27,181 bases of DNA from JBDRGX01 sp043817485 [NCBI: bacterium] (GTDB lineage Bacteria > JBDRGX01): NCBI GenBank assembly GCA_043817485.1, contig JBDRGX010000068.1, positions 1 through 27,181 on the forward strand. The letters are read 5' to 3'. The position numbers and the translations under genes were made by a program. Shown here in pieces: positions 166 to 23,459 of the stretch (within the stretch, counting starts at the first letter, position 1; every line of letters starts with the position of its first letter). The notes beneath the pieces were generated by a model. It ran no database searches. It was not told the DNA's origin and saw only the letters and a program-made list of their open reading frames with translations.

Positions 166-186
166 CATCAGAATAAATGGAAAATG
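166..186 (+). repeat. 21-base direct repeat, copy 1
   Basis: The 21 bases beginning catcagaataaatgg and ending aaaatg recur exactly at 4379-4399. Both copies are intergenic and lie in low-complexity AT-rich surroundings. A shorter variant (cagaataaatgaaaa) is seen near 4288. Probably an interspersed non-coding repeat of this genome. Confidence 0.7.
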
Positions 187-1996: not shown

Positions 1997-2662
1997 ATGA
2001 TAAAAAATATTTTAATTACTTTTCTTTTTTTAACTTGCTTTTTAAAATTATCTTTTTCTGTTTCTAATTCTGATAATAAAAAAATTGAAAATTTGTTAAA
2101 ACAAATAGAAAAAAAAATGGAAGAAGTTAAAAATTTTCAAGCAGAAATTACACAAACTATTTATTCCAATATGACAAAAGAAACAGAAGAAACAAAAGGT
2201 ATCATTTATTTTCAAAGTCCAGATTTGATAAAAATTGATTATTCTATTCCTAGTAAAGAAATTGTTTTTTTAAATGGAAAAACTTGTTATTTATATATAG
2301 AAGAAACTAATCAAGTGTTAAAAAAAATAATTTCTGATGAAGAAAAAAGTCTTTTTAAAGAACAATTTTTTTTCCCCAATTTTGATAAAATTAAAAAAAA
2401 TTACAAAATATTTTTTAAAGATAAAAAAGATAAAAAAAACTTTAATTTAGAGATGGTTCCGTTAAAATCAACAAATTCTTTTTTTGCTAAAATAAAAATG
2501 TCAGTTGATAAAAATTCATTTATGCTTACTAAAATAATAATACAAGATTTTTTTGAAAATAAAACTACTTTAACTTTAAGTAATTTACAGCCAAATATTG
2601 AAATAAGTAAAAATATTTTTGAATGGAAAATACCAGAAGGAGCGTCAGTAATAGAACAATGA
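1997..2662 (+). CDS. lolA: Outer-membrane lipoprotein carrier protein LolA
   Basis: LolA is the periplasmic chaperone that shuttles lipoproteins from the LolCDE complex to the outer membrane. The 221-residue product starts with a signal peptide (MIKNILITFLFLTCFLKLSFS, broken here: hydrophobic core about 4-20, likely cleavage after about residue 21). It is followed by the family pattern 'NFQAEITQTIYS' (binding-fold strand one), 'GIIYFQSPDLIKIDY', 'FLNGKTCYLYI' and a C-terminal strand 'FEWKIPEGASVIEQ'. ATG 1997 is preferred over the in-frame TTG at 1970 because AAAGGAG (1981-1987) sits 9 bases upstream and the shorter form begins directly with the signal peptide. Its TGA stop (2660-2662) overlaps the ATG of the next reading frame, where the BRO pseudogene begins. 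Confidence 0.85.
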   Translation: MIKNILITFLFLTCFLKLSFSVSNSDNKKIENLLKQIEKKMEEVKNFQAEITQTIYSNMTKETEETKGIIYFQSPDLIKIDYSIPSKEIVFLNGKTCYLYIEETNQVLKKIISDEEKSLFKEQFFFPNFDKIKKNYKIFFKDKKDKKNFNLEMVPLKSTNSFFAKIKMSVDKNSFMLTKIIIQDFFENKTTLTLSNLQPNIEISKNIFEWKIPEGASVIEQ

Positions 2663-2674
2663 ATACAAAAATAG
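2651..2674 (+). repeat. Direct repeat at cassette left edge (copy 1)
   Basis: The bases aacaatgaatacaaaaatag at 2655-2674 are identical to 4505-4524; extending left to 2651 adds four bases with one mismatch. Copy 1 spans the lolA stop and the BRO start; copy 2 spans the rimO start. The pair brackets a 1.85-kb segment of foreign appearance. Confidence 0.7.
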
Positions 2675-3488
2675 CGGTTTTTAAAAGCAAAAAAATTCGA
2701 AAAATCATATACAACAATGAATGGTGGTTTTCTGTTGTGGATGTATGTGGAGTGTTAACAGATAGCGTTGATGCTGGGGCGTACTGGAGAAAACTGAAGC
2801 AAAGACTTCAAGAGGAAGGAAGTGAGGTCGTGACATTTTGTCACGGACTCAAATTAGAAGCGTTTGATGGTAAAAAATATGAAACAGATTGCGTCAATAC
2901 CGAAGGAATATTTCGCATAATCCAATCTATCCCTTCACCAAAAGCCGAGCCGTTCAAACGGTGGTTAGCAAAGGTTGGTTATGAGCGAGTGCAGGAGATT
3001 GAAGACCCTGAGTTGGCAACAAAAAGAACGCGGGCTTTATATAAAGCTAAAGGGTATAGAGTGATGATTGGATAGAAAAACGAATGCGTGGCATTGCTAT
3101 TCGTGAAGAGCTTACCGATGAATGGAAAAAGCGTGGCATTGAAGAAAACAAAGAATATGAAATTCTAACTGCGGAAATATCTAAAGCCGCTTTTGGTCTA
3201 ACACCGAACCAATACAAAAAACTTAAAGGATTAAAAAGTCAGAATCTTAGGGATCATATGACTGACTTGGAACTTATTTTTTCTATGCTTGGCGAAGCGT
3301 CTACAACGCAAATTACCAAAGTTGAGAATCCCAGCGGATTTGAAGAAAATCGAAATGTCTCTTGTCGTGGAGGTAATGTTGCAGGAGTGGCACGGAAAAA
3401 ATTAGAACAAGAAACCGGTAAAAAAGTAGTAAGCAGGGAAAATTATCTGCAAAAACCACAGAATAAAAAGCTAATAGATAAAGAATAG
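2659..3488 (+). pseudogene. Frameshifted BRO-N (phage antirepressor-like) protein
   Basis: The 5' part (2659-3075) encodes a BRO-N domain: 'IRKIIYNNEWWFSVVDV', then 'YETDCVNTEGIFRIIQSIPS' and 'AEPFKRWLAKVGYERVQE'. It stops at a TAG at 3073. The 3' part continues in another frame (3063-3488) as 'DDWIEKRMRGIAIREELT', 'EYEILTAEISKAAFGLTP' and 'LRDHMTDLELIFSMLGEAST', the usual C-terminal half of these proteins. The join is at 3058-3061, where 'agag' stands for an expected 'ag': a two-base duplication restores the reading frame if removed. Full length would be about 275 residues. BRO-N proteins are DNA-binding and common in phages and mobile DNA. G+C is clearly higher than in the neighbours, which suggests transfer. 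Its ATG overlaps the lolA stop. Confidence 0.85.
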
Positions 3489-3538
3489 ACTGGGCAAAAA
3501 AAGAAAATTAAATTTTTGGAAAATAAGAATTTTTTGCA

Positions 3539-3860
3539 ATGAAATTGACAAGACAATTTGATAAACATTTTTCTGAAGTTGTAAATGTTATTCATCAAGC
3601 CCGTTACAATGCTATTAAAAGCATAAATGTCGAACTAATAAAATTGCATTGGAGTATTACGAATATATCAGCAAAAAAAATGCAGTTGCTGAGTGGGGCG
3701 ATGCTGTGGGATTGACCAGCTTGCTGATTATATCCAAAGCAACCATTCAGAATTTAAGGGATTTACGCGTGTCGTGGATTATCGGATAAGGCAGTTTTAT
3801 GAAACTTACAGGGGCAATAAATTTGTGTCAACAATGTTGACACAAATCAGTTGGTTTAGT
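3539..3860 (+). pseudogene. Decayed fragment of DUF1016/YhcG N-terminal domain protein
   Basis: Reading across three frames gives a recognisable DUF1016 N-terminal domain. 3539-3660 reads 'FSEVVNVIHQARYNAIKSIN' and 'LIKLHW'. From 3661 it reads 'EYISKKNAVAEWGDAV'. From about 3708 it reads 'IDQLADYIQSNHSEFKGFTR' and then 'YRIRQFYETYRGNKFVS', ending 'TQISW'. One-base shifts lie near 3660 and 3706. Near 3770-3785 a two-base gain (cgtgtcgtgg) and a two-base loss cancel out. The homology ends after ISW, and the nuclease-like (PDDEXK) C-terminal domain found in complete YhcG proteins is missing. This is a dead remnant, not a functional gene. It lies between the BRO pseudogene and the retropepsin gene, in the same higher-G+C segment. 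Confidence 0.75.
3821..3847. repeat. Perfect 12-bp inverted repeat with 3-base loop
   Basis: atttgtgtcaac (3821-3832) and gttgacacaaat (3836-3847) are exact reverse complements separated by aat. It lies inside the DUF1016 remnant, where it would encode 'FVSTMLTQI', and ends about 10 bases before homology to that family stops. It could be a hairpin or a protein-binding site; nothing shows which. Confidence 0.8.
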
Positions 3861-3885
3861 TTTATAAAAACAAAGGAGGATTATT

Positions 3886-4269
3886 ATGGGTATTTTTTAT
3901 ACAAAATGTATAATCGAAAATCATATTGATAGAAAAAAGTCAATTTTGATACCAAAAATACTTGTTGATACAGGAAGTGAATATACTTGGATTTCAAGTG
4001 AAATGCTTCATAAAATAGTCGTCGTTCGTGAAAAAAAAGATTTAGTATTTATTATGGCAAATGGTCAAAAAATAACTAGAAGTGTTGGATTCGCTATCAT
4101 TAAAATAGAAGAATTTTTTACAATTGATGAAGTTGTATTTGGTGAAAAAGGTGATATGCTTCTGCTTGGTGCAAGAACTTTAGAAGGTCTTAATTTAACA
4201 GTAAATTCTTGCTTAAAAAAACTTGTGGCTGCAGGTCCATTGCCAGTGGCTTATGGAAAAAGGAAATAA
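3886..4269 (+). CDS. Retropepsin-like aspartic protease domain protein
   Basis: The 127-residue protein carries a single retroviral-type aspartic protease domain. The catalytic motif is 'LVDTGSEYTW' (D28-T29-G30-S31), and the later hydrophobic-hydrophobic-Gly motif is 'MLLLGARTLEGL' (about 91-102). Such domains are active as homodimers in the retropepsin fold; there is no signal peptide, so it should be cytoplasmic. ATG 3886 is supported by AAAGGAGG at 3872-3879 with a 6-base spacer. Similar small orphan proteins of this type are widespread in uncultivated bacteria; their substrate is unknown to me. It is the only intact gene of the cassette between lolA and rimO. Base composition is intermediate between the cassette pseudogenes and the host genes. 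Confidence 0.75.
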   Translation: MGIFYTKCIIENHIDRKKSILIPKILVDTGSEYTWISSEMLHKIVVVREKKDLVFIMANGQKITRSVGFAIIKIEEFFTIDEVVFGEKGDMLLLGARTLEGLNLTVNSCLKKLVAAGPLPVAYGKRK

Positions 4270-4313
4270 TAAACCATCAATAATTCAGCAGAATAAATGA
4301 AAACAAGCAATCT

Positions 4314-4339
4314 TAACCCGAAGGAGTGGCATTATTGTA
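4314..4339 (+). repeat. 'CCCGAAGGRGTGGCATTATTG' repeat, copy 1 (motif here abbreviated)
   Basis: taacccgaaggagtggcatt followed by attgta matches 4452-4478 except for one missing C and one A/G change. The core ccc-gaa-ggg is weakly self-complementary. Short GC-richer intergenic repeat. Confidence 0.7.
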
Positions 4340-4378
4340 TGTTTCTGTTAATGTAAAAAAAGGCTGAAGATGTTTGTT

Positions 4379-4399
4379 CATCAGAATAAATGGAAAATG
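4379..4399 (+). repeat. 21-base direct repeat, copy 2
   Basis: Exact second copy of the intergenic repeat at 166-186 (begins catcagaataaatgg). Lies between the two gaagg-type repeats upstream of rimO. Confidence 0.7.
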
Positions 4400-4451
4400 T
4401 AAAATGTAAAATTATAGTAATTTTCAATTTCAATATTTTTACCGATAATTC

Positions 4452-4478
4452 TAACCCCGAAGGGGTGGCATTATTGTA
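4452..4478 (+). repeat. Gaagg-type intergenic repeat, copy 2
   Basis: taaccccgaaggggtggcat followed by tattgta. The core CCCCGAAGGGG can form a four-base-pair hairpin with a GAA loop. It ends 30 bases before the rimO start codon, so it forms part of the rimO leader. Confidence 0.7.
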
Positions 4479-4500
4479 GAAGGTGATATTATTATAGCAA

Positions 4501-4524
4501 ATAAAACAATGAATACAAAAATAG
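4501..4524 (+). repeat. Direct repeat at cassette right edge (copy 2)
   Basis: Second copy of the repeat at 2651-2674 (20 identical bases, 4505-4524). It carries the rimO start codon. Confidence 0.7.
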
Positions 4525-5831
4525 GATTTATTAGTTTAGGTTGTCCTAAAAATAGAGTAGATTCAGAAGTAATGTTAGGAATTTTAAAAGAAAAAGGATT
4601 TACAATTACATCAAATGAAAATGAATCTGATATAATAATTATCAATACCTGTTGTTTTATTAAAGATGCAGAACAAGAAGCTTTAGATACTATTCAGGAA
4701 TTTTCTCTTTTAAAACAAAAAGGTATTATAAAAAAACTTATTGTTACGGGTTGTTTAGTTCAAAGATATAAAAATAAATGTCTTGAAAAATTTCCATTTG
4801 TAGATGCTTTTATTGGTACAGGAGAAATTGCTTCTATTGATAAAATTGCTTTTCAAGTATTTGAAAAAAAAATAATTAAAGTTAAAGAGCCAAAATATTT
4901 ATATAATCATACTACTCCTTTAATAAAAACTACTCCTTTTTATACAAGTTATGTAAAAATAGCTGATGGATGTGATAATAGATGTAGTTATTGTTTAATT
5001 CCTTTTGTAAGGGGCTCTTATAGAAGTAGAAAAATAAATTCTATTGTAAAAGAAGTTGAAAAATTAAAATTTTCAAAAGAAATAATTTTAGTTTCTCAAG
5101 ATACTACAAATTATGGAAAGGATATTTATGGTAAAAATAAGTTAGTTTCTCTTTTGAAAAATCTTAGTAAAATTTCTCATGTTGAATGGATTCGGTTAAT
5201 GTACACTTATCCTGGACATTATACTGAAGAATTTATAAAATATATTTCTGAAAATTCTAAAATTTGTCGTTATTTAGATATTCCTATTCAACATATTAGT
5301 TCTCGAATTTTAAAAAAAATGAATAGAAAACAAGATAAAAAATTTATTACAAATTTATTATTAAAATTAAAAGAAAAAATTCCAAACATTTCCTTAAGAA
5401 CTTCTATTTTAGTAGGTTTTCCAAGTGAAACAGAAAAAGATTTTGAAGAATTAGTAAATTTTATTCAAAAAATTAAGTTTAATAAATTAGGGGTTTTTAC
5501 TTATTCTAATGAAAAAGAAACACCTTCTTCAAAAATAAAAAATCAAATTTCAGAAAAAGTAAAATTAGAAAGAAAAGATATTTTAATGAAAATACAGCAA
5601 AAAATTTCTTTTGAAAAAAATCAAGAAATTGTTGGAAAGAAAATAAAAGTTTTAATAGAAGGAAAAAAATCGCAATCTCTTTTTATTGGAAGATCTGAAT
5701 ATGATGCTCCTGAAATTGATGGAGTAGTTTATGTGAAACCAAATAAAAAAAATGAACCTCAAATTGGAGAAATGGTTGTAGTTAAAATAACAAAAGGAGA
5801 TGAATACGATCTTTATGGAAAAATTTCGTAA
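4509..5831 (+). CDS. rimO: Ribosomal protein S12 methylthiotransferase RimO
   Basis: RimO is a radical-SAM enzyme that adds a methylthio group to a conserved aspartate of ribosomal protein S12, using two 4Fe-4S clusters. The 440-residue protein has the N-terminal UPF0004 domain with cluster cysteines C12, C48 and C82. The radical-SAM motif 'GCDNRCSYC' follows (C155, C159, C162), and a C-terminal TRAM domain covers about 375-440. 'SLGCPKNRVDSEVM' is the RimO rather than the MiaB form. ATG 4509 has no Shine-Dalgarno at a useful distance: the nearest, AAGGTG at 4480-4485, is 23 bases away. The reading frame overlaps pgpA at its end. The bare leader is explained if rimO originally overlapped the lolA stop and was coupled to it (inference). 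Confidence 0.93.
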   Translation: MNTKIGFISLGCPKNRVDSEVMLGILKEKGFTITSNENESDIIIINTCCFIKDAEQEALDTIQEFSLLKQKGIIKKLIVTGCLVQRYKNKCLEKFPFVDAFIGTGEIASIDKIAFQVFEKKIIKVKEPKYLYNHTTPLIKTTPFYTSYVKIADGCDNRCSYCLIPFVRGSYRSRKINSIVKEVEKLKFSKEIILVSQDTTNYGKDIYGKNKLVSLLKNLSKISHVEWIRLMYTYPGHYTEEFIKYISENSKICRYLDIPIQHISSRILKKMNRKQDKKFITNLLLKLKEKIPNISLRTSILVGFPSETEKDFEELVNFIQKIKFNKLGVFTYSNEKETPSSKIKNQISEKVKLERKDILMKIQQKISFEKNQEIVGKKIKVLIEGKKSQSLFIGRSEYDAPEIDGVVYVKPNKKNEPQIGEMVVVKITKGDEYDLYGKIS

Positions 5832-6276
5832 TTTTATTATTTTATTTTTTGCTACTTCAATTGGAACGGGTTATTTTCCTTTTGCTTCAGGAACTATTAG
5901 TGCCTTATTAGTTGGATTTCCTATTTATTGGCTAATTAAAGAAAATATTTTTATATATTTTTTAATAATCTTTTTTTTAATTATTTTAGGTTGTTTTACA
6001 TCTCATAAAGCAGAACAAATTTTAAAAGAAAAAGATAGTAAAAAAATTACTATAGATGAAGTTGTAGGGCTTTTGATTGCTTTTTGGGGTATTTCAATTA
6101 ATATAAAATTATTATTATTGGGATTTTTAATTAATAGAGGATTAGATATAATTAAACCTTTTCCAATAAATAAAACTCAAAAATTTCCAGGTGGTATAGG
6201 AATAATGGCAGATGATATTTTAGCTGGAATAGTATCTAATATTATATTAAAAATAATTTCAATAAATTTGTTATGA
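5815..6276 (+). CDS. pgpA: Phosphatidylglycerophosphatase A
   Basis: This enzyme removes the terminal phosphate of phosphatidylglycerophosphate to give phosphatidylglycerol, at the cytoplasmic face of the membrane. The protein shows the family signatures 'GTGYFPFASGT' near the N-terminus, 'DEVVG' in the middle and 'IKPFPI' with 'GGIGIMADDILAG' near the C-terminus. It has about four hydrophobic segments. Two starts are possible. ATG 5800 has AAAAGGAG touching it with no spacer; ATG 5815 has the same motif 15 bases upstream and gives 153 residues. I chose 5815; either way the gene overlaps the end of rimO, so the pair is co-translated. rimO beside phospholipid genes is a common arrangement. Confidence 0.85.
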   Translation: MEKFRNFIILFFATSIGTGYFPFASGTISALLVGFPIYWLIKENIFIYFLIIFFLIILGCFTSHKAEQILKEKDSKKITIDEVVGLLIAFWGISINIKLLLLGFLINRGLDIIKPFPINKTQKFPGGIGIMADDILAGIVSNIILKIISINLL

Positions 6277-8821: not shown

Positions 8822-8862
8822 CAAGTCGCATTCAAACACTAACTGTGTTGGCTTTATTACGG
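8822..8862 (+). repeat. Repeat flanking lysA, copy 1
   Basis: About 41 bases starting caagtcgcattcaaacacta match 10197-10238 with three substitutions and one indel. Both copies have the same orientation and lie just outside lysA. The core aacac-taact-gtgtt can pair. Confidence 0.8.
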
Positions 8863-10196: not shown

Positions 10197-10238
10197 CAAG
10201 TCGCATTCAAACACTAATTGTGTTGACTTTGTTATCGG
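10197..10238 (+). repeat. Repeat flanking lysA, copy 2
   Basis: Begins caagtcgcattcaaacacta and pairs with 8822-8862 (about 90% identical). The core aacac-taatt-gtgtt is a perfect five-base-pair hairpin. It is immediately followed by the GC-rich patch at 10247. Confidence 0.8.
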
Positions 10239-10378: not shown

Positions 10379-11454
10379 TTACTTTATAAATTCATTAAAT
10401 TTTTCAAAATTTTTCATTTTTTTAATTTTTTCTAATAAAACTTTTACCATTTCATTTTCTGGTATTTTTTTAATTAGTTTTCCTTTTTCAAAAAGCATTC
10501 CATATCCTTTTCCTCCAGCAATGCCTATATCTGCATAAGAAGCTTCTCCTGGACCATTTACAACACATCCCATAATAGCAATTTTAATTGGTTCATGAAA
10601 ATTTTTAAGACCATTTTGAATTTTTTTAGTAATTTGAAAAATATTAATATTACATCTTCCACAAGTAGGACAAGAAATAATTGTTGGACCATATTCCCCT
10701 AAATTTAAAACTTTTAAAATTTCATATCCAGTTTTTACTTCATTTATTGATGTATCAGTTAATGAAACTCTTATAGTATCTCCTATCCCTTGTGCTAATA
10801 AAACTCCTATCCCAATACTTGAACGAATATTTCCGTTTATTAGAGGTCCAGATTCTGTAACTCCAATATGAAAAGGATATTTTACTTTGGAAGATAAAAG
10901 ATGATGTGATTCTATCAGTAAGGGAATATCAAAAGATTTTACAGAAATTACAATATTTTTAAAATCCATATCTTCAAATAATTTAACATAATCTAAAGTT
11001 TTTTCTACTAAAATTTCTGGTTTTATATTTTTTGTTTTTGTTCCAAAAATAGAGCCCGTATTTATTCCTATTCTAATAGGAATATTTTTTGTTTAGAAGC
11101 ATCAATAATTGCTTTTATTTTCTTTTTTTCTTTTATATTTCCTGGATTTATTCTAATTTTATCTGCACCTTGCGATATTGATTCTAATGCTAATTTATAA
11201 TCAAAATGAATATCTGCTACTAAAGGAATTTTAATATGCTTTTTTATAAAATTTATTTTAGAAGCAAATTCCATATCAGGAACAGCAACTCTAATAATTT
11301 TACAACCAACTTTTTCTAATTTTTTTATTTCTTTAATAATCCCTTTAATATCTTGTGGTGGTGTTTTACACATTGATTGAACTAAAATAGGATGATTACT
11401 TCCAATAAATTCATTTCCTATTTTTATAGAAAAAGTTTCTCTTCTTTTGATCAT
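10379..11454 (-). pseudogene. ispG: 4-hydroxy-3-methylbut-2-enyl diphosphate synthase IspG, split by a one-base frameshift
   Basis: IspG (GcpE) performs the sixth step of the MEP isoprenoid pathway with a 4Fe-4S cluster. The 5' part (11454 down to about 11085) reads 'SNHPILVQSMCKTPP', 'PLVADIHFDYKLAL' and 'KIRINPGNI'. It then falls out of frame. The rest continues as 'NIPIRIGINTGSIFG', and the C-terminal domain carries the cluster cysteines 'ISCPTCGRCN' and 'MGCVVNGPGEA'. The break is a run of six T (11085-11090, A on the coding strand) where seven restore about 358 residues, normal length. Everything else is well conserved, so the gene looks recently broken, misassembled or rescued by slippage. 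It starts 10 bases after larA. A TTG at 11457 is an alternative start. Confidence 0.9.
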
Positions 11455-11464
11455 CAATATTGCC

Positions 11465-22008: not shown

Positions 22009-22061
22009 TTATTAACAAAACTTTTTTAAAATTAAAACATTTGAATTTTAATAAAATTACT

Positions 22062-22661
22062 ATGAAAAATGAAATAAAAGAAATTGAAAAAGACTTGAAA
22101 TTTGTAAAAAAAACATATTTAAAACTTTTAACAATTTTGCCAAGTTTTGATATTACTGATAATAAAATTTTACCTTATGGATTAAAAGCACATACGAGAT
22201 CTGTAAGTTGGTTAGTAGAACAGGTTATTACGCAACAAACAAAATACAATTCTAAAAAACTTGGCATTGATGATGTTCATTTTGATTTTCCTGATACTTC
22301 ATTGCATGATTGTGAAATAATCGTTGATAACAAAAATTATTTTGTAAATGTAAAAATTCATAATATTGAAGGCAAAGAAAATAAAAACGATATAGCCGCA
22401 GTAGAAAAATTATATTTTCAATACAGCGTTAACAAAAATTATACTTTAATTTATGCTTGTTTTGGAATTAAATTTGAAAATATAAAAATAAGTTTTATAA
22501 AAGATTATTTGGAAGTTTTCTCACCTCAATTTTTACCAATTTATGTAAATCCAAGAAATGATAAAATTCAAGCAACTTATAAACATAACAAAATTTATAG
22601 AACACGAGAAGAATTTTTAAAAATGTTAAAAGAAAAATCAAAAAGTATTATTTTAAAATAA
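22062..22661 (+). CDS. Probable type II restriction endonuclease
   Basis: The 199-residue protein shows no close family that I can name. Its position three bases before a DNA methyltransferase argues for the cognate endonuclease. A PD-(D/E)xK-like core is visible: 'FPDTSLHDCEIIVDNK' with D83 and E85, then 'YFVNVKIHN' with N96-V-K98. The acidic residue usually two places before the lysine is replaced by asparagine, as in R.MspI (D99, N117, K119). Later 'NYTLIYACFGIKFENIKISF' fits a core strand. ATG 22062 was chosen; TTG 22041 is an alternative. Neither has a Shine-Dalgarno, unlike most host genes. The recognition sequence is unknown. Confidence 0.65.
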   Translation: MKNEIKEIEKDLKFVKKTYLKLLTILPSFDITDNKILPYGLKAHTRSVSWLVEQVITQQTKYNSKKLGIDDVHFDFPDTSLHDCEIIVDNKNYFVNVKIHNIEGKENKNDIAAVEKLYFQYSVNKNYTLIYACFGIKFENIKISFIKDYLEVFSPQFLPIYVNPRNDKIQATYKHNKIYRTREEFLKMLKEKSKSIILK

Positions 22662-22664
22662 ACT

Positions 22665-23459
22665 ATGAATAAAATTTTTAATGAAGATATTTTATTGGGA
22701 ATAAATAAAATAGAAAATGATTCTATTGATTTAATATTAACTGACCCACCGTATTGCTTAGGAAAAAATTATGGAAATGATTCTGACCAAAAATCAGCAG
22801 AAGAATATTTAAATTGGACATATCAATGGATTGATGTAGTTTTGCCAAAATTAAAAAATACAGGAAGTTTTTATATTTTTTTAAGTTGGCAATACTCACC
22901 AGAAATTTTTGTTTATTTAAAAAAGAAATTAAGAATGGTTAATGAAATTATTTGGGATAGACGAGTTCCAAGTATGGGCGGATCTACAAGAAAATTTTCT
23001 TCTGTACATGATAATATTGGTTTTTTTGTAAAAAATAACAATTATTATTTTAATATTGATAGTATAAGAATTCCTTATGATGAAGAAACTAAAAAAGCAA
23101 GAACAAGATCGATTTTTGTTGGAAAAAAATGGTTAGAAATGGGTTATAATCCAAAAGATTTATGGAGTGCTTCAAGAATACATGCACAAGATCCTGAAAG
23201 AGAAAATCACCCCACACAAAAACCTTTGAATATAATTGAACGCATTGTGAAAGTAAGTTGTCCAAAAAATGGCGTGGTTTTTGATCCATTTATGGGAACA
23301 GGAACAACTGCTATTGCTTGTTTAAAAAATGATAGACAATATGTTGGTTTTGAAATAAACAAAGATTATCATAAAATGATAATGAATAGAATTAAAAAGT
23401 ATAATAGTTGTCCTACATTATTTCAACAACAAACTCAAAAACAGTATAATTTGGCTTAA
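22665..23459 (+). CDS. Type II DNA methyltransferase, beta class (adenine N6 or cytosine N4)
   Basis: The 264-residue protein uses SAM to methylate an exocyclic amino group in DNA and protects against the partner endonuclease. Motif IV 'TDPPYCLG' is at 26-33, followed by the target recognition region with 'WDRRVPSMGGSTRKFSSVHD'. Next come motif X 'HPTQKP' and motif I 'FDPFMGTGTTAIAC' near the C-terminus. The order IV-TRD-X-I marks the beta class. DPPY (rather than SPPY) favours N6-adenine. No Shine-Dalgarno is seen before ATG 22665. It is a compact, complete gene with low G+C like its surroundings. Confidence 0.85.
   Translation: MNKIFNEDILLGINKIENDSIDLILTDPPYCLGKNYGNDSDQKSAEEYLNWTYQWIDVVLPKLKNTGSFYIFLSWQYSPEIFVYLKKKLRMVNEIIWDRRVPSMGGSTRKFSSVHDNIGFFVKNNNYYFNIDSIRIPYDEETKKARTRSIFVGKKWLEMGYNPKDLWSASRIHAQDPERENHPTQKPLNIIERIVKVSCPKNGVVFDPFMGTGTTAIACLKNDRQYVGFEINKDYHKMIMNRIKKYNSCPTLFQQQTQKQYNLA

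What the first reader, a model, noticed from the sequence alone, without database searches (positions are those of the whole stretch)
2651..4524. Foreign cassette inserted exactly at a lolA/rimO start-stop overlap, bounded by the same 20 bases
The bases 2655-2674 and 4505-4524 are identical (20 of 20; 23 of 24 when extended to 2651/4501) and each contains a start codon. If 2659-4508 is removed, lolA and rimO join with an ATGA overlap, a normal operon junction. The removed segment holds a BRO gene, a DUF1016 remnant and a retropepsin gene, with higher G+C. rimO today has no Shine-Dalgarno, which fits loss of coupling to lolA. One reading is insertion of a mobile cassette with target duplication. 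Another is recombination at chance similarity, since both proteins naturally begin MNTKI.
Basis: partly seen in the sequence, partly recalled or inferred. Interest (0 to 1): 0.65.

Follow-up and report, generated by a model that had tools for sequence, protein, structure and literature searches.

The report
Foreign gene debris splitting an operon
A stretch of foreign, mostly broken genes sits exactly where two neighbouring bacterial genes would normally touch, apparently because the start of the foreign gene happened to resemble the start of the resident gene; it is a neat but ordinary example of how bacteria pick up stray DNA.

Summary
In detail: 2655-2674 equals 4505-4524, and without 2659-4508 lolA and rimO would overlap as ATGA. 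Distant relatives support an insertion: 13 of 130 rimO loci have lolA directly upstream, and 4 of these, from at least three phyla, show the exact ATGA overlap. The inserted BRO gene (PADLOC PDC-S13) is full length but frameshifted. Its nearest relative found is 85% identical, whereas RimO reached at most 52%, so it is probably acquired. A DUF1016 remnant, a protease gene and repeats follow. Target duplication is unlikely: 10 of 66 related BRO genes begin M-x-T-K-I-x-x-F, three of them with DNA matching the repeat at 17 of 20, and RimO begins M-x-x-(x)-[KR]-I-G in 5 of the 13 relatives. Both starts therefore look native. The perfect 20-base match remains odd. The host lineage is unnamed and no close relative was found, so the event is inferred.

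The parts
1997..2662 (+). lolA, upstream half of the ancestral gene pair; ends V-I-E-Q with TGA at 2660-2662
   Evidence: Pfam LolA E 3.3e-18; lolA of relatives L188, L262, L263, L267 also ends in EQ or EQP
2655..2674 (+). left copy of the 20-base direct repeat: lolA end plus BRO start
   Evidence: identical to 4505-4524
2659..3488 (+). BRO (Bro-N, PADLOC PDC-S13) gene, full length but frameshifted between the ORFs 2659-3075 and 3084-3488
   Evidence: Pfam Bro-N E 5.1e-15; PDLC04920 positions 2-138 and 146-274 of 286; phrog_15286 in both halves
3539..3926 (+). DUF1016 N-terminal-domain remnant in more than one frame, stops inside
   Evidence: DUF1016_N profile 1-30 in 3539-3709 (E 4.3e-4) and 49-98 in 3693-3926 (E 4e-6), both below the curated cut-off; frames with stops
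3886..4269 (+). clan AA (retropepsin-like) aspartic protease gene, open, with an AGGAGG upstream
   Evidence: Pfam gag-asp_proteas E 6.7e-7, over cut-off; TIGR03698 below cut-off; 61-64% identical relatives in three genomes
4311..4478 (+). two copies (4311-4339, 4450-4478) of a short G+C-rich palindromic repeat in the segment's tail
   Evidence: a 27-base, 96% match in genome G279, locus L261
4379..4399 (+). 21 bases shared with 166-186 of the same window, outside the segment
4505..4524 (+). right copy of the 20-base direct repeat, at the rimO start
4509..5831 (+). rimO, intact, downstream half of the ancestral pair
   Evidence: TIGR01125 RimO 509 bits, cut-off 357
5800..6276 (+). pgpA, next gene
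   Evidence: Pfam PgpA E 1e-36; relative L121 has lolA, rimO, another ORF, then pgpA

Best explanation
lolA and rimO were an overlapping ATGA gene pair (shown in distant relatives, inferred here). DNA carrying a BRO gene of the PDC-S13 family entered the cell (horizontal origin supported by the match pattern; route unknown). The 5' end of that BRO gene resembled the rimO start, about 16-25 bases with few mismatches, because both proteins tend to begin M-x-x-(x)-K-I and the genome is very A-rich. Short-homology recombination joined the two at their start codons (inferred), leaving lolA read into the BRO start at the old ATGA site and a second copy of the start region before rimO; the last mismatches were evened out in the crossover (inferred). 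This kept rimO whole and put BRO where lolA translation could be coupled to it, as some BRO genes elsewhere follow an upstream gene closely. The segment has since decayed: BRO is frameshifted and DUF1016 is a remnant, while the protease ORF is open.
For: Empty site: lolA directly upstream of rimO in 13 of 130 rimO loci, exact ATGA in L121, L188, L206, L262, in at least three phyla: the held phylum of G262 is 2 genomes, that of G225 is 8, and G423 (L206) is in neither. Foreign BRO: its N-terminal half is 85% and 81% identical to L220 and L221, while RimO is at most 52% identical in the searches made, and G444 and G275, which hold those BRO genes, give only weak RimO-family matches (1.8e-69 and 1.5e-53). 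Native BRO start: 10 of 66 BRO loci begin M-x-T-K-I-x-x-F; their DNA reaches 17 of 20 with the repeat in 3 of 66, more than any of the other 795 ATG contexts of the window (at most 16). Native rimO start: in 5 of the 13 relatives (L188, L262, L263, L265, L266) rimO begins M(2 or 3 residues)-[KR]-I-G. BRO behind other genes: an upstream ORF of 100 aa or more ends within about 60 bases of the assigned BRO start in 16 of 66 loci, overlapping it by 4 bases in L090, L100 and L249.
Against: No close relative with the empty site was found; all 13 adjacent pairs are distant (RimO 38-47% identical), and 8 of these 13 RimO starts do not have the M-x-x-(x)-[KR]-I-G form. In 115 of 130 rimO loci no lolA was found near rimO. 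No BRO gene elsewhere carries the identical 20 bases (0 of 66), and 59 of 66 BRO starts match it at only 14 of 20 or less. Conversion of the last mismatches is assumed. DUF1016 and the protease gene were not found beside other BRO genes in the loci held (short flanks), so the segment may have come in more than one step.
Confidence: 0.6

Rival explanations
1. A foreign segment was inserted by some unrelated event next to the lolA stop, and the 20-base identity arose by convergence of two A-rich starts that both encode M-N-T-K-I.
For: BRO starts from other genomes reach 17 of 20 with no link to rimO, so much of the likeness is convergent; gene starts here are A-rich.
Against: A position-specific model of 19 gene starts of this window gives about 3.5e-8 for a given start to equal this 20-mer (small sample, one start out of register, protein constraints ignored). 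The likeness runs on upstream: 24 of 25 from 2650/4500.
Confidence: 0.17
2. A mobile cassette inserted with target-site duplication of 20-25 bases, BRO borrowing the start codon of the target.
For: Perfect 20-base (24 of 25) direct repeat at both ends, preserved rimO frame, higher G+C inside.
Against: The BRO N-terminus has the sequence and length seen in part of its family, which a borrowed start would match only by luck; no transposase or integrase family matched in the ORFs scanned; longest exact inverted match near the ends is 5 bases; the segment is compositionally mixed.
Confidence: 0.08
3. The rimO start was rebuilt: the incoming DNA ended with a second BRO start that replaced the first codons of rimO.
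For: The bases at the rimO start are as BRO-like as those of BRO itself (17 of 20 to L107 and L110); duplicated or fragmentary BRO copies lie close together in other genomes (for example G116 and G131; G219).
Against: RimO in 5 of 13 relatives of the lolA-rimO type has a similar M-x-x-(x)-[KR]-I-G start, so no rebuilding is needed.
Confidence: 0.08
4. Assembly chimera at a shared 20-mer.
For: The window has no held genome and may be a metagenome record; composition changes abruptly; an ispG-like gene is also frameshifted.
Against: One contig would need two false joins at the same word, in order; the segment's tail shares 21 bases with 166-186 outside the segment.
Confidence: 0.05

Closest known systems
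Small variable segments attributed to illegitimate recombination (PMC2884548, passages read)
   Same: Extra DNA between conserved genes, no mobility gene found, flanked by a short direct repeat; that paper reports 10-18% of variable segments flanked by repeats, most under 30 bp, and for E. coli favours illegitimate recombination, in part short-homology or homology-assisted.
   Different: Here the segment is 1.85 kb of probably acquired genes rather than 20-500 bp, and the repeat is formed by two gene starts.
BRO / PADLOC candidate PDC-S13 genes
   Same: Bro-N domain and whole-length match; patchy spread (43 of 124 genomes in the phylum of G004; 39 of 317 in a broad panel), many matches fragmentary.
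   Different: Frameshifted, and sits after lolA; in three loci from the phylum of G004 the upstream neighbour carries a helicase C-terminal domain (L103, L105, L114).
ATGA-overlapping, translationally coupled gene pairs (PMC6728339, abstract start, passages)
   Same: lolA/rimO in four relatives overlap by ATGA; lolA/BRO does so here.
   Different: rimO in this window lacks the overlap; coupling was not tested in any of them.
Phage repressor-antirepressor pairs with Bro-N plus Ant or KilA-C domains (PMC2701414, passages read)
   Same: Shared Bro-N domain; several PHROG antirepressor matches of the first half, the best at 5.8e-9.
   Different: Far stronger match to phrog_15286 (unknown function) and PDC-S13 in both halves.

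Membership tests
BRO / PDC-S13 | Bro-N domain at the N-terminus | tested here: met
   PF02498 E 5.1e-15 over cut-off
BRO / PDC-S13 | whole-length family match | tested here: met
   PDLC04920 2-138 in the first ORF and 146-274 in the second
BRO / PDC-S13 | intact reading frame | tested here: not met
   two ORFs in different frames, 2659-3075 and 3084-3488; uninterrupted relatives exist
Insertion sequence or transposon | transposase or integrase gene | tested here: not met
   no such family for the plus-strand segment ORFs scanned in Pfam, NCBIfam, PADLOC or PHROGs; minus-strand ORFs were not scanned
Insertion sequence or transposon | terminal inverted repeats | tested here: not met
   longest exact inverted match near the ends is 5 bases
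Insertion sequence or transposon | target-site duplication | tested here: inconclusive
   the direct repeat exists, but the BRO start looks native to BRO
Insertion by short-homology recombination | short direct repeat (<30 bp) at both ends without mobility genes | tested here: met
   families
Insertion by short-homology recombination | homology pre-existing in donor and target | tested here: inconclusive
   similar starts in some related BRO genes (17 of 20 in 3 of 66) and in 5 of 13 RimO relatives; the actual donor and target were not found
ATGA-coupled lolA-rimO pair | uninterrupted 4-base overlap in relatives | tested here: met
   L121, L188, L206, L262, 4 of 13 adjacent pairs
ATGA-coupled lolA-rimO pair | translation of the second gene depends on the first | not testable with these tools
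   needs reporters
Clan AA aspartic protease | family match over curated cut-off | tested here: met
   PF13975 30.3 bits, cut-off 28.2; TIGR03698 below its cut-off

The most novel reading that the evidence does not exclude
BRO genes of this family might spread as start-for-start cassettes: their conserved 5' end (about ATGGAAACAAAAATAG in several genomes) would act as a built-in homology arm that recombines with A-rich gene starts, putting BRO behind a translated gene while re-creating the start of the displaced gene.
Probability: 0.03. Interest if true: 0.7.

Novelty: new member of a known kind. Interest (0 to 1): 0.27.

Why it matters
If right, it is a clean example of foreign DNA inserted at an overlapping start/stop without loss of either resident gene. 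It shows that a perfect short direct repeat need not be a target duplication when the inserted gene's own start resembles the site. It also records lolA-rimO as a tightly packed gene pair shared by genomes of several phyla.

Tried and rejected
Own genome: not held, so copies of the segment or the repeat elsewhere in the same genome could not be sought. Lineage: the one genome-contig scan gave rimO matches of at most 47% (best 80 of 257 kept). A rimO tree with these 80 placed the window in no phylum (long branch). Ribosomal protein L1 over 317 genomes gave no clear nearest group. The held phyla of G279, G200, G262 and G225 gave best RimO matches of about 39-52%. LolA, compared with eight others, is closest to L188 of G225's phylum (E 1.2e-22), a hint only.

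Start-targeting as a habit of BRO genes: of 38 loci given to, 24 could be scored (13 gave no usable plus-strand hit and L095 no start). A copy of the BRO start at 18 of 20 or better was found in 0 of 24 (best 17 in L115, 16 in L089). The flanks were short (about 1.5-5 kb) and starts were assigned by script, so this is weak negative evidence. Exact 17-mer search of viral contigs: 10 stretches, none BRO-like in the residues that follow. Segment as a conserved module: DUF1016 pieces and protease had no hit at E 1e-4 in the 249 loci held, but the protease has relatives in 14 of 290 genomes. Palindromic repeat as a wide element: 2 of 289 genomes with up to one mismatch, one of them (L260) apparently inside a coding sequence (read by eye). 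Structured RNA in the segment: none of the 3 Rfam matches in the window lies there. Tandem repeats: two minor arrays. Structure prediction was not used, since family assignments were clear. An earlier count said 18 of 20 for L107/L110; one search corrects this to 17 of 20. I first took the upstream neighbour of some BRO genes for a methylase subunit; Pfam shows a helicase domain.

Papers: five searches; passages read of PMC2701414, PMC2884548 and PMC6728339; PMC3240628 (homology-facilitated illegitimate recombination in E. coli) seen only in a listing with the start of its abstract. I make no claim that anything is absent from print.
Full report
WHAT IS THERE. The repeat, its coordinates and the start/stop geometry are as described. 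lolA ends with TGA at 2660-2662. The ATG at 2659 opens the BRO gene, and the ATG at 4509 opens rimO. The 20 bases 2655-2674 equal 4505-4524; over 2650-2674 and 4500-4524 they agree at 24 of 25. Between them lie a BRO gene, DUF1016 debris, a clan AA protease gene and a tail with two copies of a short G+C-rich palindromic repeat. The two ORFs 2659-3075 and 3084-3488 are one gene: PADLOC model PDLC04920 (PDC-S13) is matched at 2-138 by the first and at 146-274 by the second, and phrog_15286 spans both. The gene is thus full length but frameshifted.

CHANCE. In the 27 kb only three pairs of exact direct repeats reach 20 bases and none reaches 22. Of 797 ATG contexts, none besides the pair matches the repeat at more than 16 of 20. 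A position-specific model from 19 gene starts of this window (one of them out of register) gives about 3.5e-8 for a given start to equal this 20-mer. That model is small and ignores protein constraints, so it serves only to say that plain chance is a poor explanation.

THE SITE IS AN OLD GENE PAIR. It finds lolA directly upstream of rimO in 13, the six seed cases included: L119, L121, L164, L186, L187, L188, L206, L262, L263, L265, L266, L267, L268. In L121, L188, L206 and L262 the lolA TGA and the rimO ATG overlap as ATGA. Two more loci (L194, L195) have lolA 548 and 792 bases upstream with another gene between. In the other 115 the profile found no lolA near rimO. The held phylum of G262 has 2 genomes and that of G225 has 8, 7 of them with the adjacency. 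G423 (L206) is in neither, so the ATGA form occurs in at least three phyla. lolA of L188, L262, L263 and L267 ends in EQ or EQP, and the window's in VIEQ, so the lolA stop inside the left repeat looks native. In L121 pgpA follows rimO after another ORF.

THE INSERT IS PROBABLY FOREIGN. The BRO N-terminal half is 85% identical to L220 (G444) and 81% to L221 (G275). RimO reaches at most 52% in the searches made, and G444 and G275 give only weak RimO-family matches (1.8e-69 and 1.5e-53). PDC-S13 genes and fragments occur in 43 of 124 genomes of the phylum of G004 and BRO matches in 39 of 317 of a broad panel. DUF1016 pieces and the protease did not turn up in the 249 loci held at that point, BRO loci included (short flanks). 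The protease has matches in 14 of 290 genomes, three of them 61-64% identical. The fall of G+C along the segment (39.8, 35.1, 29.2, 28.5%), and the 21 bases its tail shares with 166-186, suggest a composite of foreign and long-resident DNA.

WHY NOT A TARGET DUPLICATION. If BRO had received its start from the target, its first codons should look like RimO and not like BRO. They look like those of part of the BRO family. Ten of 66 BRO loci with an N-terminal match begin M-x-T-K-I-x-x-F, and the window's MNTKIAVFKSKK lines up with METKIAVFKGKE of L106 without a gap. The DNA of these starts comes to 17 of 20 with the repeat in L106, L107 and L110, to 16 in L114 and L232, and to 15 in L099 and L105; the other 59 of 66 are at 14 or less. 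In the loci that could be scored no second copy of the BRO start at 18 of 20 or better lies nearby (0 of 24 scored of 38 given, short flanks). RimO begins M(2 or 3 residues)-[KR]-I-G in 5 of the 13 relatives (L188, L262, L263, L265, L266) and otherwise in the other 8. So both starts may well have been alike before they met, and the likeness would be what brought them together. No mobility gene was matched in the plus-strand ORFs scanned, and no terminal inverted match beyond 5 bases was seen.

MECHANISM. Shown: the native pair in distant relatives, the match pattern that points to transfer of BRO, the likeness of the two kinds of start, and the decay. Inferred: a short-homology joining at the two starts, with the remaining mismatches evened out. 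A repeat under 30 bp points to short-homology or homology-assisted illegitimate recombination, as argued mainly for E. coli in a study of small variable segments in three species (PMC2884548, passages). Some BRO genes elsewhere also sit close behind another gene: in 16 of 66 loci an ORF of at least 100 aa ends within about 60 bases of the assigned BRO start, and in L090, L100 and L249 the overlap is 4 bases. In L103, L105 and L114 that gene carries a helicase C-terminal domain. Taking the coupled place behind lolA would therefore suit BRO; this is a suggestion and was not tested. rimO now lacks the overlap and has no Shine-Dalgarno at normal spacing (read), so it may be translated less well; this too is untested. 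ATGA overlaps are a known basis of coupling (PMC6728339, passages).

LIMITS. The lineage is unnamed, no close relative and no own genome were available, and the identical 20 bases were not seen at any other BRO gene (0 of 66). A frameshift in an ispG-like gene of the same window leaves room for sequencing error, which could also touch the BRO frameshift.

VERDICT. The explanation is ordinary: probably acquired, decayed genes of kinds listed among defence candidates, joined at a short similarity.

Noticed in passing
window 10379-11457, minus strand: An ispG-like gene (named from its translation, not searched) is split into two ORFs by a frameshift near 11070; a normally essential gene broken this way hints at a sequencing error or a recent mutation.
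   Followed up: partly
window 8822-8842 and 10197-10217: A 21-base direct repeat flanks a lysA-like decarboxylase gene; with 166/4379 it is the longest exact direct repeat of the window and may be a dispersed intergenic repeat.
   Followed up: no
window 166-186 and 4379-4399: 21 identical bases in the upstream intergenic region and in the tail of the inserted segment.
   Followed up: no
L261 1456-1524 (genome G279): The palindromic repeat of the segment's tail (window 4453-4479) recurs in both orientations in G279, whose RimO is also among the closest found.
   Followed up: partly
phylum of G225: L188, L262, L263, L265-L268: lolA-rimO adjacency holds in 7 of the 8 held genomes of this phylum, and L188's LolA is the nearest of eight compared; the window may belong near it.
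   Followed up: partly
phylum of G004 (Cloacimonadota, by the title of L063): PDC-S13 BRO matches occur in 43 of 124 genomes, many as fragments, which suggests frequent gain and decay.
   Followed up: no
window 22041-23459: A DNA methylase gene (N6_N4_Mtase) follows an ORF with no Pfam match, possibly its restriction enzyme.
   Followed up: no
L293 (G333), L294 (G164): Two of the three closest relatives of the segment's protease carry an internal stop codon, so decay of this gene may be common.
   Followed up: no
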